Positions 24,560 through 29,827 of a stretch of DNA of 47,426 bases are shown here, piece by piece. Origin of the DNA: Patescibacteria group bacterium (GTDB taxonomy: Bacteria > Patescibacteriota > Patescibacteriia > Patescibacteriales > GWC2-42-12). The position numbers were made by a program, and so were the translations under genes. The stretch is from contig JAQVNC010000002.1 of assembly GCA_028703305.1 (NCBI GenBank), forward strand, positions 1-47,426, written 5' to 3'. Position 1 is the stretch's first letter, and every line of letters begins with the position of its first letter. The notes under the pieces were generated by a model. It ran no database searches, was not told the DNA's origin, and worked only from the letters and a program-made list of their open reading frames with translations.

Positions 24560-25597
24560 ATGAAAAGTAAAACTTATCACATTATCACCATCGGCTGCCA
24601 GATGAATAAGTCGGACAGCGAAAGAATGGCAAGCCTCCTGGAACAGCACGGCTATAAAAAGACTGATAAGAATCGGGCCGATTTAGTGGTGGTTAATACT
24701 TGCGGCGTCAGGCAGATGTCGGAAGATAGAGTCTACGGTTTAATTCCGGCAATAAAAAGAAAAAGTAAAAAAACAAAAATAATTTTAACCGGCTGTCTAG
24801 TAAATAGAAAAGACGTCAGGGGCAGATTAAAAAATTACGTGGATATTTGGCTGCCGATAACACAAATGATAAATGCTAAACGCCCCGATGATTATCTAAA
24901 AATAAAGCCAAATTACGAATCTAAATTTTCCGCCTATGTGCCGATTGGCAACGGCTGCGATAATTTTTGCTCTTATTGCGTCGTGCCTTACGCGCGGGGC
25001 AGGGAAGTCTATCGGCCGGCTAAAGAAGTGATAATTGAAGTTAAAGGCTTAATTAAAAAAAATTATAAAGAGATTATTTTAATCGCGCAAAACGTTAACA
25101 GCTATAAATCGGGCAAGACCGATTTTGCCGATTTATTGAAAATGGCGGATAATATTAAGGGTGATTTTCAGATCAGTTTTTTAACCAGCCATCCCAAGGA
25201 TATGTCGGACAGATTGATTAAAGCCATAGCGCGATGCGAAAAGGTGATAAAAGAAATCCATCTGCCGGCGCAAAGCGGCGACAATGAAATTCTTAAGAAG
25301 ATGAACCGTAGATATACGATTGAGCATTATAAAAAAATAATAAAAAAAATCAAGCGGCTAATGCCTGATGCTAAAATCAGTACGGATATTATTGTGGGTT
25401 TTCCGGGCGAGACCAAGAAACAATTTAATAATACGGTTAAACTTTTTAAAGAAATCAAATTTCATAAAGCCTATATCTCCAAATACAGCCCTCGTCCGGG
25501 CACAGCGGCTTTTAAATTGGCCGATGACGTTTTGCCGGCGGAGAAAAAAAGACGCTGGCTTAAGCTGAATTTTTTATTAAAATATGGCAAAGAATAA
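24560..25597 (+). CDS. miaB: MiaB-family tRNA methylthiotransferase, lacking TRAM
   Basis: 345 residues, about 90 shorter than usual. The N-terminal UPF0004 domain has TIGCQMNKSDSERM, VVNTCGVRQ and LTGCLVNR, giving three Cys ligands; the radical SAM site is GCDNFCSYC, followed by VPYARGRE. The protein stops soon after the radical SAM barrel, so the TRAM RNA-binding domain is missing. MiaB adds a methylthio group to i6A37 of tRNA, and the next gene, miaA, makes that i6A. The ATG is 1 nt after dnaJ with AAGGAG upstream; a TTG at 24548 is less likely. MtaB-type substrates cannot be excluded. Confidence 0.88.
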   Translation: MKSKTYHIITIGCQMNKSDSERMASLLEQHGYKKTDKNRADLVVVNTCGVRQMSEDRVYGLIPAIKRKSKKTKIILTGCLVNRKDVRGRLKNYVDIWLPITQMINAKRPDDYLKIKPNYESKFSAYVPIGNGCDNFCSYCVVPYARGREVYRPAKEVIIEVKGLIKKNYKEIILIAQNVNSYKSGKTDFADLLKMADNIKGDFQISFLTSHPKDMSDRLIKAIARCEKVIKEIHLPAQSGDNEILKKMNRRYTIEHYKKIIKKIKRLMPDAKISTDIIVGFPGETKKQFNNTVKLFKEIKFHKAYISKYSPRPGTAAFKLADDVLPAEKKRRWLKLNFLLKYGKE

Positions 25598-26486
25598 AGT
25601 CATTGTTATTTTAGGGCCGACGGCCAGCGGCAAAACCAAATTGGCCGTAGAATTAGCGTCTAAGTTCAACGGCGAAATCGTTAGCGCTGATTCGCGCCAG
25701 GTTTATCGCGGCATGGATATTGGTACCGGCAAAGATTTAAGCGAATATAGCGTGCCGTATCATTTAATTGACGTGGCCAACCCTAAGGTTAGGTTTGATT
25801 TGGCTAAATACCAGGCTCTGGCGTTTCAAGCCATTGACGATATTTTAAAACGCGGCAAATTGCCGATTTTAGCCGGCGGTTCGGGGCTTTATCTTCAGGC
25901 CGTAGTGGATAATTATAAATTGTCGGAAGTAAAAAAAGATTTAGCCTTAAGAAAAAAGATGGAGAAGTTAAGCGTTGAAGAGCTGTTTGATAAAATTAAA
26001 AAGCTGGCGCCGAAAATATCGGCTAAGTTAAATGATAGCGATAAAAAAAATAAGCGCCGGCTAATAAGATATTTGGAAATTTTAGGGCAAGACAAAAATT
26101 TTAAAAATCGCCAAGGCAAAAGAAAGTACGAGGCTTTAATTATCGGCGTTAAAGTAAGCAAAGATTCATTAAAACAAAGGATTTTTAAAAGATTGCTGGA
26201 TCGGGTAAAAGAGCAAAATATGATAGGGGAGGTGGAAAATTTACGCCATCAAGGTTTAAGTTGGAAGAAATTAGAGGAGTTTGGCTTGGAATATAAATTT
26301 ATTGCCTTATATTTGCAAAAGAAATTAACCTATAATGAGATGTTGGAAAAATTGAATGTCGCTATTTATCAATTCGCCAAGCGCCAGCTAACTTGGTTTA
26401 AGCGCTGGGAAAAGCAAGGCGCGAAAATAAATTGGCTTAAGGATATTAAAAAAGTTGAAAAGCTGATAAGTGAATTTTTGGAATAA
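25584..26486 (+). CDS. miaA: tRNA dimethylallyltransferase MiaA
   Basis: 300 residues, standard length. The P-loop is GPTASGKTKLAVELA, followed by SADSRQVYRGMDIGTGK and LAGGSGLYLQAVVD, which are family signatures. The C-terminal part has the KRRLIRYLEI and YQFAKRQLTWFKRW segments that contact tRNA. It transfers a dimethylallyl group to A37 of UNN-decoding tRNAs. It overlaps the end of miaB by 14 nt, so the two successive modification steps are translationally coupled. Confidence 0.96.
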   Translation: MAKNKVIVILGPTASGKTKLAVELASKFNGEIVSADSRQVYRGMDIGTGKDLSEYSVPYHLIDVANPKVRFDLAKYQALAFQAIDDILKRGKLPILAGGSGLYLQAVVDNYKLSEVKKDLALRKKMEKLSVEELFDKIKKLAPKISAKLNDSDKKNKRRLIRYLEILGQDKNFKNRQGKRKYEALIIGVKVSKDSLKQRIFKRLLDRVKEQNMIGEVENLRHQGLSWKKLEEFGLEYKFIALYLQKKLTYNEMLEKLNVAIYQFAKRQLTWFKRWEKQGAKINWLKDIKKVEKLISEFLE

Positions 26487-26541: not shown

Positions 26542-26838
26542 TTAGGCGGCGGAGAAAGCCGCCGTGATTGAGGCCGGATCCGTTATTTTTTGAATTTGTA
26601 CTTGCACCGGCCGATATTTTCTGGGTAAACAATCTTGGCCTTCGAAGCATTTTTTTTCGGCCGGCCATAATTTCCTGATCTGCGGAATATCGCAGGCGCA
26701 GTTTATCTTGGCGACACCGGCAACGGCCAACAATGGGCATAAGCTCGCGTACAAATCGATTGCATCGGGGCAATTATCCTCATCTTCCGCGTTGCATCCA
26801 CCGCCAGGAAATTTACAATAATTTTTGTATCGGCACAT
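26542..26838 (-). CDS. small Cys-rich hypothetical protein
   Basis: 98 residues from the ATG at 26838, chosen because AGGAGG lies 5 nt upstream; a longer frame begins ten codons earlier but has no ribosome site. The protein has about nine Cys, spaced as C-x5-C-x6-C-x7-C in the first 25 residues (MCRYKNYCKFPGGGCN...) and again as CACD and KKCFEGQDC later, which suggests metal or disulphide binding. No signal peptide is seen. No family is recognised. It has its own terminator. Confidence 0.7.
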   Translation of the reverse strand: MCRYKNYCKFPGGGCNAEDEDNCPDAIDLYASLCPLLAVAGVAKINCACDIPQIRKLWPAEKKCFEGQDCLPRKYRPVQVQIQKITDPASITAAFSAA

Positions 26839-26901
26839 ATTTTCCTCCTTTTTTCTTCTAAAGATCAAACAGTTTTAGTTTATATAATATTATTACGCCC
26901 T

Positions 26902-26939
26902 AAAAAAATTCCCCGTTCTTTGGAACGGGGAATTTTTTT
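26902..26939. terminator. bidirectional rho-independent terminator
   Basis: CCCCGTTC / GAACGGGG stem extended by AATT, with A7 on one side and T7 on the other, so it works in both directions. On the minus strand it follows the 26-codon minigene directly. Confidence 0.93.
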
Positions 26940-27018
26940 AAAAAATAATTTTCTGCCTTGGGTCATAACCCAAGTCCATATAGATAAATTTTTTTTTGTT
27001 GATAATATTTTTTTGCAT
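26938..27018 (-). CDS. candidate leaderless 26-residue minigene
   Basis: ATG at 27018 to TAA at 26938-26940. The peptide is Lys/Ile-rich at its start and has the central segment MDLGYDPRQ. The ATG lies 7 nt after the -10 box of a good promoter (27026-27053), and the stop codon abuts the stem of a strong terminator, so promoter, reading frame and terminator form a compact unit of about 115 nt. It is separate from gatB, which ends at 27117. No homologue is known to me. A small RNA with a chance frame is the alternative. Confidence 0.5.
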   Translation of the reverse strand: MQKNIINKKKFIYMDLGYDPRQKIIF

Positions 27019-27025
27019 TGCCCTT

Positions 27026-27053
27026 ATTCTACCATACCGCCAATATCTGTCAA
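27026..27053 (-). promoter_or_regulatory. sigma70-type promoter of the minigene
   Basis: TTGACA (27048-27053), 16-bp spacer, TAGAAT (27026-27031) on the minus strand. Predicted start is at 27018-27020, the ATG itself. Confidence 0.75.
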
Positions 27054-27116: not shown

Positions 27117-28625
27117 TTATTTAGTTAGAGAGTTCTTTAATAATTCAATAACGGTTTTAGGGTTAGCCTTGCCTTTGGTGGTTGACATAACCTGGCCGAT
27201 CAAGAATTGCAGGACATTGGTTTTGCCGGCTTTATACTCGTCGGTTTGTTTCTGATTTCTAAGCATGACTTCGGCGATAATTTTTTCCAAAGCCGCTTTG
27301 TCGTCTAACTGTTCCAGCCCTAAATCAGCCATAATATTTGTCGGGTCGCCGCCTTTTTTAAACATTTGTTTTAATATTGTTTGGGCGGCCGAAGAGTTAA
27401 CTTTATCCTGGTAAATTAAACAAATAAGTTCGGCAAAATTTTCCGGCGTAATTTTAAGCCGGCTGATACTCTTGCCATCGGCCTTAAGATGCTTAAATAG
27501 CTCGTTAATCAGCCAGTTGGCCGCGGCTTTAGCTAATTTATGTTTTTGCCTTTCCCAATCGTCGCCGGTTGATTCAATCCAGGCCCTAAGTTCGGAAATT
27601 ACTTTTTCGGCATAATCGGCCAAGTCTTTATCGCCGGCTAAAATTTCCGCTTCTTTATCGGTAAATAAATATTCGTCTTTAAAGCGTTTAATTTTTTGCG
27701 CCGGCAGTTCGCCCATGCCGCCTTTAATTTTATCAATCCATTTTTGGCCGATCTTTAACGGTGGAATATCCGGCTCGGGAAAATAGCGATAATCGGCCGA
27801 AGTTTCTTTTACTCTTTGGCTAAAAGTTATGCCTTTATCGTTATTCCAGCCGCGCGTTTCCTGAATTAATTTTTCGCCGTCCGCCAAAGCTTTAATCTGC
27901 CGCTTGATTTCATAATCAACGGCCTTTTCCATGTATCTAAAAGAATTTATATTTTTTAGTTCAACTTTTGGGTTTAATTTATAATCGCCAATCGGCAGAA
28001 TTTGCCCATTCTCATATTTCCATTTGCCTTTTTCCTGCACGCTGATATTGGCTTCGCATCTCATTTCGCCTTTTTCCATGTCAGCGTTGGAAATATCTAA
28101 AAATCTTAGAATTTGCTGGTAATTTTGCGCGAATTTTTTGGCCGTAGCCGCGTCTTTAATAACCGGTTCGGTTACCAGCTCAATTAAAGGGGTGCCGGCG
28201 CGATTGCAATCTACCAGAGAATATTTTTTTCCGGCCGGGTGGATTAATTTGCCGGTGTCTTCTTCCAGATGAATTCTGGTTACTAAAATCGGCTTGCCTT
28301 CAACATCCAAAAAGCCGTCGTAAGCGATTGGCAAATCATATTGGGAAATTTGATAGCCCTTAGGCAAGTCGGGATAAAAATAGTTTTTGCGGTCAAATTT
28401 TGAAAGCTCGTTGATTTTGCAATTTAAAGCCAGGCCTATTAAAATCGTCCATTCAATCGCCTGCTTATTGGGCAGGGGCAAAGTTCCGGGATGCGCCAGG
28501 CAGATCGGGCAAACCGTAGTGTTGGCTTCTTTATTCTGGGCGTCGTTATCGCATTCGCAGAACATTTTGGATTTGGTTTTTAACTCGGCATGGATTTCCA
28601 AGCCGATGATGACATCATATTTCAT
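27117..28625 (-). CDS. gatB: aspartyl/glutamyl-tRNA amidotransferase subunit B
   Basis: 502 residues, slightly longer than the common 475-480. The kinase-amidotransferase core begins YDVIIGLEIHAELKTKSKMFC with CxC/CPIC zinc ligands (C23, C25, C39, C42), then FDRKNYFYPDLPKGYQISQYD, HLEEDTGK, DCNRAGTPLIELVTEP and ADYRYFPEPDIPPL. The C-terminal GatB/YqeY tail ends NPKTVIELLKNSL. It converts misacylated Glu-tRNA(Gln) and Asp-tRNA(Asn) with GatA and GatC, neither of which is in the window. A leaderless promoter lies just before it, although it also follows the thymidylate operon by 26 nt. Confidence 0.96.
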   Translation of the reverse strand: MKYDVIIGLEIHAELKTKSKMFCECDNDAQNKEANTTVCPICLAHPGTLPLPNKQAIEWTILIGLALNCKINELSKFDRKNYFYPDLPKGYQISQYDLPIAYDGFLDVEGKPILVTRIHLEEDTGKLIHPAGKKYSLVDCNRAGTPLIELVTEPVIKDAATAKKFAQNYQQILRFLDISNADMEKGEMRCEANISVQEKGKWKYENGQILPIGDYKLNPKVELKNINSFRYMEKAVDYEIKRQIKALADGEKLIQETRGWNNDKGITFSQRVKETSADYRYFPEPDIPPLKIGQKWIDKIKGGMGELPAQKIKRFKDEYLFTDKEAEILAGDKDLADYAEKVISELRAWIESTGDDWERQKHKLAKAAANWLINELFKHLKADGKSISRLKITPENFAELICLIYQDKVNSSAAQTILKQMFKKGGDPTNIMADLGLEQLDDKAALEKIIAEVMLRNQKQTDEYKAGKTNVLQFLIGQVMSTTKGKANPKTVIELLKNSLTK

Positions 28626-28631
28626 ATTACT

Positions 28632-28660
28632 ATTTTAGCCTAAAGTAAGTTTTAAAACAA
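28632..28660 (-). promoter_or_regulatory. candidate leaderless promoter of gatB
   Basis: TTGTTT (28655-28660), 17-bp spacer, TAAAAT (28632-28637), only 6 nt before the gatB ATG. It overlaps the end of the thymidylate kinase-dUTPase gene. Confidence 0.5.
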
Positions 28661-29827
28661 CCCTGATGACCCGAATCTGCCATCTTTTCTTTCCGTATCA
28701 TTGGCGACGCGCCCTTCAATTATTTCCGGCGCTTCAATTTTCTGGATTAGTAATTGGGCGATTTTTTGACCGGGCGCGATATGATAAATATCCTGACCCA
28801 GATTTATCACGTTAATAATTATTTCTCCGCGGTAGCCGGCGTCTATCACCCCGCCGATTACATGAATGCTGTTCTTCGCCACGCCGCCCTTATCCCAGAC
28901 TAAGCCGACATAGCCTTCGGGTATGGCGATTTTTATGCCGATATGTATATCGTCCCGGCCACCCGGAGCCAAAGAGCAGTAATCGGCCGAATATAAATCC
29001 AGGCCGGCATCATGTTCGTAGGCGCGGGTAGGCAATTTAGCCCAGGAGGATATGCGTTCAATTTTTAATTTTAATGTGTTTTCTTTAACTCCGGCCGATG
29101 ATATTTTATGGCGCGGTTTTTCCGTGTTGGCTATACCGGCCGTTGGCGAAAAAAGTTTTATTATTTCTTGCCAGATTAAATTACCGATGTCTTCGCGGTT
29201 TAGTATTTGTCCGTCCGCCACGCATTCAATTAGCGAGAAATTGGGGAAGTTCCGCGCGATTTGCAAATAGGTCTGTTCGGCTTTTTTAAGGTGGTCTAAG
29301 CTGTTCTGATGGATGTCATTAATTTTACCAATCCAATCTTCTTTCTGTCTTTGCCTCGCCAAGGCTTGGGAAATTTCCGCCGGAACATGAAGAATGATAT
29401 TTAAATCAGGGCGGGGGATATTAAAAATTTCATATTCCAGCTGATAGAGCCAATCAAAAAAATGTTTTTGCTCCAAGGGGTTTTCAATTTTGCCGCCTTG
29501 ATGGCCCATGTTGGCCGTAACATAGCGGTTGGAAATTACGATTTTCCCCTCGGCCAGCCAGGTTTTTATTTTAAAGCTGGCATCATAGCGGTCGGCCGCG
29601 TAAAAAATAGAAGCTCGGTATGGCCCGACTTTTTCCGGCGAACCGTATTTGCCGCTTAGATATTCTTCAACCAAGCCGGCCGATTTGGTGTTATATTGCG
29701 GAAAGTCGGCGATAGCCACGCTAAAACCGGCTCGGCTAAGCCTTTCAGCTAAAAGCTGGGTCTGGGTGGCTTTGCCCGAGCCGTCAGTACCATCAACCAC
29801 GATAAATTTTCCGCGTGTTTTTTGCAT
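28652..29827 (-). CDS. thymidylate kinase-dUTPase fusion
   Basis: 391 residues. The N-terminal part (about 5-225) is a thymidylate kinase: P-loop GTDGSGKATQ (13-22), the dTMP-site segment ADRYDAS (78-84) and SNRYVTANMGHQG (99-111). After a linker (about 226-250) comes a trimeric-type dUTPase with motif 1 DAGLDLYS (273-280), motif 2 WDKGGVAKNS (311-320, divergent from the usual RSG/RSS), motif 3 GGVIDAGYRGE (325-335), motif 4 GQKIAQLL (353-360) and motif 5 RKDGRFGSSG (380-389). One chain could therefore make dUMP from dUTP and phosphorylate dTMP. It is the last of the thymidylate genes. Confidence 0.93.
   Translation of the reverse strand: MQKTRGKFIVVDGTDGSGKATQTQLLAERLSRAGFSVAIADFPQYNTKSAGLVEEYLSGKYGSPEKVGPYRASIFYAADRYDASFKIKTWLAEGKIVISNRYVTANMGHQGGKIENPLEQKHFFDWLYQLEYEIFNIPRPDLNIILHVPAEISQALARQRQKEDWIGKINDIHQNSLDHLKKAEQTYLQIARNFPNFSLIECVADGQILNREDIGNLIWQEIIKLFSPTAGIANTEKPRHKISSAGVKENTLKLKIERISSWAKLPTRAYEHDAGLDLYSADYCSLAPGGRDDIHIGIKIAIPEGYVGLVWDKGGVAKNSIHVIGGVIDAGYRGEIIINVINLGQDIYHIAPGQKIAQLLIQKIEAPEIIEGRVANDTERKDGRFGSSGLF

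What the first reader, a model, noticed from the sequence alone, without database searches (positions are those of the whole stretch)
26938..27053. Candidate leaderless minigene of 26 codons
Promoter TTGACA-16-TAGAAT, ATG at the expected transcription start, 26 codons, and a stop codon touching a strong terminator: nothing is wasted in about 115 nt. It is too short for normal gene calling. It could encode a small regulatory or toxic peptide, or be a small RNA.
Basis: seen in the sequence. Interest (0 to 1): 0.65.

Follow-up and report, generated by a model that had tools for sequence, protein, structure and literature searches.

The report
Translated attenuator leader in a Patescibacterium
The 26-codon mini-gene is real and its reading frame is kept in related genomes, but it looks less like a free-standing peptide gene than like a small translated switch that decides whether transcription stops at a terminator or runs on into the next gene.

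Summary
TTGACA-16-TAGAAT (11/12, extended -10) precedes an ATG by 7 nt; 26 codons end at a TAA that abuts a 17-bp terminator. It is not chance: the unit recurs at the same place (gatB, unit, small gene, convergent miaA) in relatives, 21 loci in all, one of them in another order.

In 20 of 21 loci the frame is open from a start codon to a stop overlapping the terminator's A-tract. Lengths change by whole codons, and the terminator stem is rewritten with compensation between families. Inside the family, differences are equal at the three codon positions (187/206/205): translation is kept, the inner amino-acid sequence is not. A gene with a ribosome-binding site always follows, and in 20 of 21 loci it has no promoter above 8/12 of its own.

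Best explanation: a leaderless, translated transcription attenuator. A ribosome at the stop codon covers the terminator's 5' arm and lets RNA polymerase read on into a Cys-rich protein gene (here and in most loci) or a PyrB-type gene (8 loci). A pause-like hairpin and U-rich run recall E. coli pyrBI, but the signal is unknown. Function is inferred from sequence only. A toxin or a known RNA family is not supported.

The parts
27026..27053 (-). promoter TTGACA-16-TAGAAT with extended -10 (TG)
   Evidence: 11/12; 10-12/12 at the same place in 16 of 21 homologous loci
26938..27018 (-). leaderless leader ORF, ATG to TAA, 26 codons
   Evidence: frame open in 20 of 21 loci
26957..26974 (-). hairpin 1 inside the ORF (CUUGGGU-UAUG-ACCCAAG), possible pause hairpin
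   Evidence: pairs kept through two-sided changes in relatives
26940..26948 (-). U-rich run UUAUUUUUU just before the stop and terminator
   Evidence: sequence; 5-11 U in the 14 nt before the stop in all 20 ORFs
26902..26939 (-). intrinsic terminator, 17-bp stem, loop CAAA, 7 U; its A-tract overlaps the stop codon
   Evidence: stem rewritten with compensation between families
26856..26866 (-). boxA-like GATCTTTAGAA, role unproven
   Evidence: GNTCTTT in about 10 of 21 loci; not found in the genome's own rRNA leader
26844..26849 (-). ribosome-binding site AGGAGG of the downstream ORF
   Evidence: sequence
26542..26838 (-). 98-aa Cys-rich protein, presumed regulated gene
   Evidence: no Pfam or NCBIfam match

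Best explanation
This is a translated transcription attenuator for the gene that follows it (26542-26838, a Cys-rich protein; a PyrB-type gene in some relatives). Shown from sequence: a strong promoter is placed so that the RNA should begin at or within 1-2 nt of the AUG; an ORF of 19-33 codons runs to a stop that overlaps the A-tract of an intrinsic terminator; a gene with a ribosome-binding site follows, almost never with its own promoter. Inferred: a ribosome loads at once on the leaderless AUG and follows RNA polymerase. Where hairpin 1 is present, the polymerase pauses 11-12 nt after it, in the U-rich run, until the ribosome catches up. A ribosome at the stop codon covers the first 10-15 nt after it, which is the terminator's 5' arm, so the hairpin cannot form and the downstream gene is transcribed. 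Without a close ribosome, the terminator forms and only a leader RNA of about 115 nt is made. What is sensed is open: UTP or polymerase speed as in E. coli pyrBI, general translation capacity, or slow release at the common Ile-Phe-stop.
For: Same place (gatB, unit, gene, convergent miaA) across the order, and unit, Cys-rich gene, miaA in another order. Frame open in 20 of 21 loci; with dinucleotide shuffles and a one-third phase factor, one draw per family, the product is about 7e-11. Within the close family, a substitution-only simulation gives 1.3e-3 for all six relatives staying open, before indels, which are all multiples of three. Terminator 5' arm lies within 0-14 nt after the stop. Stem rewritten with compensation between families. 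No promoter above 8/12 between terminator and downstream start in 20 of 21 loci, against 10-12/12 before the ORF in 16. Flat codon-position differences fit a leader whose translation, not product, matters. Strong matches at one site per genome.
Against: No expression, ribosome-profiling or termination data. No classical antiterminator stood out in the folds and there is no run of one regulatory codon. Downstream genes are not uniform. The near-invariant stem sequence inside the family is not required by this model. Two close relatives (G003, G011) have gatB next to miaA without the unit, and G001 has a 132-aa ORF in the leader's place. Hairpin 1 is weak or absent in several loci. One locus (G023) has lost the stop at the terminator.
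Confidence: 0.66

Rival explanations
1. pyrBI-type UTP sensor in the strict sense: low UTP makes RNA polymerase pause in the U-run, the ribosome catches up, and read-through rises.
For: U-rich run directly before the terminator in all 20 ORFs and hairpin 1 about 11-12 nt before it in many; PyrB-type gene in 8 of 21 loci; precedent that a ribosome on the pyr leader blocks the terminator (PMC5021804).
Against: The window's genome has no PyrB and no dihydroorotate dehydrogenase; most loci control a Cys-rich gene; two PyrB copies (G007, G023) lack the STRTR motif.
Confidence: 0.25
2. Nascent-peptide arrest: the C-terminal (R/K)-(K/N)-x-I-F stalls the ribosome at the stop codon in response to a ligand and so blocks the terminator.
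For: 13 of 20 peptides end in Ile-Phe; the last four codons are nearly unchanged in the family.
Against: The same codons are unchanged at the nucleotide level too, so the U-run explains them equally well; C-termini differ elsewhere (TIS, IRF, IGN, DLYF, IYI).
Confidence: 0.15
3. Free-standing leaderless minigene or dual-function small RNA; its position before the downstream gene is incidental.
For: Near-invariant terminator stem inside the family; the attenuator RNA of Sinorhizobium trpL acts in trans as well (PMC7298713).
Against: Peptide sequence drifts; a gene without its own promoter follows in nearly every locus; terminator sequence changes completely between families.
Confidence: 0.17
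4. Chance open frame over a non-coding leader or terminator.
For: Flat codon-position differences; a TAA arises almost automatically where a U-run meets an A-tract.
Against: Frame open and in phase in 20 of 21 loci; other frames carry stops; indels are whole codons.
Confidence: 0.08

Closest known systems
E. coli pyrBI attenuator (pyrL leader)
   Same: Promoter, short translated leader, U-rich run before an intrinsic terminator; a ribosome close behind RNA polymerase blocks the hairpin (PMC5021804). PyrB-type gene downstream in eight relatives.
   Different: Leaderless start without Shine-Dalgarno; the stop abuts the terminator, whereas pyrL (from my own knowledge) runs through it; mostly Cys-rich genes downstream; no PyrB in this genome.
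Sinorhizobium meliloti trpL attenuator (rnTrpL/peTrpL)
   Same: The attenuator RNA begins with the ATG of the leader ORF: a leaderless translated attenuator (PMC7298713).
   Different: No Trp or other regulatory codon run, no trp genes, no antiterminator pairing found.
Leaderless Cys-rich upstream ORFs of mycobacteria
   Same: Conserved upstream small ORFs proposed to attenuate the downstream operon (PMC4633059).
   Different: There the leader is Cys-rich; here the leader has almost no Cys codons and the downstream protein is Cys-rich.

Membership tests
Leader-peptide transcription attenuator (general) | promoter, short ORF, intrinsic terminator, then the regulated gene on the same strand | tested here: met
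Leader-peptide transcription attenuator (general) | leader ORF kept open by selection | tested here: met
   open in 20 of 21 loci, length changes in whole codons
Leader-peptide transcription attenuator (general) | translation of the leader changes terminator read-through | not testable with these tools
   needs a reporter or RNA data
trp/his-type amino-acid attenuator | run of codons for the regulated amino acid | tested here: not met
   no shared run except Lys, which the A-richness explains
trp/his-type amino-acid attenuator | mutually exclusive antiterminator hairpin | tested here: inconclusive
   hairpin 1 and terminator coexist; no competing pairing stood out
pyrBI-type UTP attenuator | U-rich run before the terminator inside the translated leader | tested here: met
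pyrBI-type UTP attenuator | pyrimidine biosynthesis gene downstream | tested here: not met
   PyrB in 8 of 21 loci but absent from the window's genome
Leaderless mRNA | start codon at the 5' end of the RNA | tested here: inconclusive
   ATG 7-8 nt after the -10 in 10 loci; the 5' end is not mapped; 5' leaders of about 20-55 nt in G027-G030, G047, G049, G055
Known RNA family (Rfam 15) | match at gathering score | tested here: not met
   none; only sub-threshold matches
Type I toxin | short hydrophobic peptide | tested here: not met
   basic hydrophilic peptides

The most novel reading that the evidence does not exclude
An undescribed family of leaderless, translated transcription attenuators in Patescibacteria, with the stop codon built into the terminator, that reads transcription-translation coupling or UTP directly and controls Cys-rich proteins or carbamoyltransferases.
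Probability: 0.5. Interest if true: 0.65.

Novelty: new variant of a known kind. Interest (0 to 1): 0.5.

Why it matters
Almost nothing is known about gene regulation in Patescibacteria, which lack most classical regulators. A compact switch of about 115 nt conserved between families, with a leaderless start and a stop fused to the terminator, would show that transcription-translation coupling is used for regulation there, and it can be tested by reporter fusion in a laboratory strain. It also warns that short leaderless ORFs beside terminators should be read as possible leaders before being called peptide genes.

Tried and rejected
Rfam: no family at gathering score; sub-threshold hits are terminator look-alikes. 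Peptide search alone found only G002, at E = 0.04: the sequence diverges too fast. Class-wide RNA model search: nearly all weak hits outside the order are the ends of ordinary genes, often rplL, with a terminator; only G176 held up on inspection. Genome pattern scan hits in Sphingobacterium, Opitutae and Ruminococcus records were set aside as likely chance without close inspection. Type I toxin and small ribosomal protein: rejected for lack of peptide conservation or hydrophobicity. PyrB regulation as the sole purpose: rejected for this genome, which has no PyrB and no dihydroorotate dehydrogenase. A true boxA downstream: not established, because the genome's own rRNA leader lacks the same motif. 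The Cys-rich protein has no Pfam, NCBIfam or solved-structure match. Literature on Patescibacteria with leader peptides: one passing mention only.

Full report
What is there. On the minus strand, downstream of gatB (27117-28625), stand TTGACA-16-TAGAAT with an extended -10 (11/12), an ATG 7 nt after the -10, 26 codons, a TAA at 26940-26938, and a 17-bp terminator whose A-tract overlaps the stop (26939-26902, z = -5.2). Inside the ORF lies a 7-bp hairpin (26974-26957), and a U-rich run separates it from the stop. After the terminator come a GATCTTTAGAA motif, AGGAGG and a 98-aa Cys-rich ORF (26838-26542). The convergent miaA (25584-26486) closes the locus.

Conservation. A DNA search found the element in seven of 13 family genomes. 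An RNA model then found G012, G023, G027, G030 and G055 in the order. A class-wide search gave mostly ordinary gene ends, but also G176 of another order. The miaA 3' flanks of 39 order genomes gave eight more loci. The order is gatB, sometimes an extra ORF, unit, gene, convergent miaA. In G176 the upstream gene differs but unit, Cys-rich gene and miaA are kept. Named public records of these loci are Candidatus Falkowbacteria and unnamed Parcubacteria or Patescibacteria.

Is it translated? In 20 of 21 loci the frame is open from ATG (15), GTG (4) or CTG (1) to a stop overlapping the terminator. Start choice was free in the GTG and CTG cases, so these count for less. Shuffling each body leaves the frame open in 7-44% of cases; with the one-third phase factor and one draw per family the product is about 7e-11. 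Within the close family a substitution-only simulation gives 1.3e-3 for all six relatives, and lengths differ only by whole codons. Differences fall equally on codon positions (187/206/205; 46 synonymous to 300 non-synonymous codon differences over all pairs). So the inner peptide sequence is not conserved while the frame is. The last four codons are nearly fixed, but at the nucleotide level as well.

Is it a leader? In all 21 loci a gene with a ribosome-binding site begins 61-149 nt after the terminator key sequence used. In 20 of them no promoter above 8/12 lies between (G098: 9/12), while 10-12/12 promoters precede the ORF in 16. The terminator stem differs completely between families yet always pairs (UUCCCCGUUC/GAACGGGGAA; UAUCCUGUCC/GGACAGGAUA; ACCUCCC/GGGAGGU). 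The 5' arm begins right at the stop and ends within 14 nt of it, inside the footprint of a ribosome at the stop (footprint size from general knowledge). This is the layout of a ribosome-controlled terminator.

What is regulated and sensed? The next gene is a Cys-rich protein in most loci (motif CP-x-M ... C-[DH]-x-P ... C ... C, without Pfam or NCBIfam match), a PyrB-type carbamoyltransferase in G005-G008, G028 and G029, a Cys-rich head fused to PyrB in G047, and Cys-rich followed by PyrB in G023. The U-run, the hairpin about 12 nt before it, and the PyrB cases resemble E. coli pyrBI, where tight coupling across the leader prevents the terminator from forming (PMC5021804). But this genome has neither PyrB nor dihydroorotate dehydrogenase, so UTP sensing is a lead and not a finding.

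Novelty. Leaderless translated attenuators are known: the Sinorhizobium trpL attenuator RNA begins with its ATG (PMC7298713), and leaderless uORFs are proposed as attenuators in mycobacteria (PMC4633059). I found no description of one in Patescibacteria, within the limits of an open-access library. Hence: new variant of a known kind. All functional statements are inferences from sequence; no RNA or protein data were available.

Noticed in passing
26856-26866 (-), and relatives G001, G002, G012, G014, G027-G029, G098, G176: A boxA-like GNTCTTT motif lies about 25-41 nt before the downstream ATG in about 10 of 21 loci (87 nt in G029), but the genome's own rRNA leader does not carry the same motif.
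   Followed up: partly
L017 (G007), L039 (G023): PyrB-type proteins beside the unit have lost the STRTR carbamoyl-phosphate motif (SPCTR, DELTR), so they may not be active enzymes.
   Followed up: no
L132 (G047): A Cys-rich N-terminal head is fused to a PyrB-type domain right after the leader.
   Followed up: no
26542-26550 (-), also G004, G021, G049: Several downstream Cys-rich proteins end in -AA (FSAA, HSAA, LEAA, QKAA), like degradation tails.
   Followed up: no
28652-29827 (-): The ORF looks like a thymidylate kinase fused to a dUTPase; seen by eye, not searched.
   Followed up: no
L093 (G001): In a same-genus genome the leader ORF is replaced by a 132-aa ORF, while the AGGGAGTAA after the terminator, CGATCTTT and the Cys-rich gene are kept.
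   Followed up: partly
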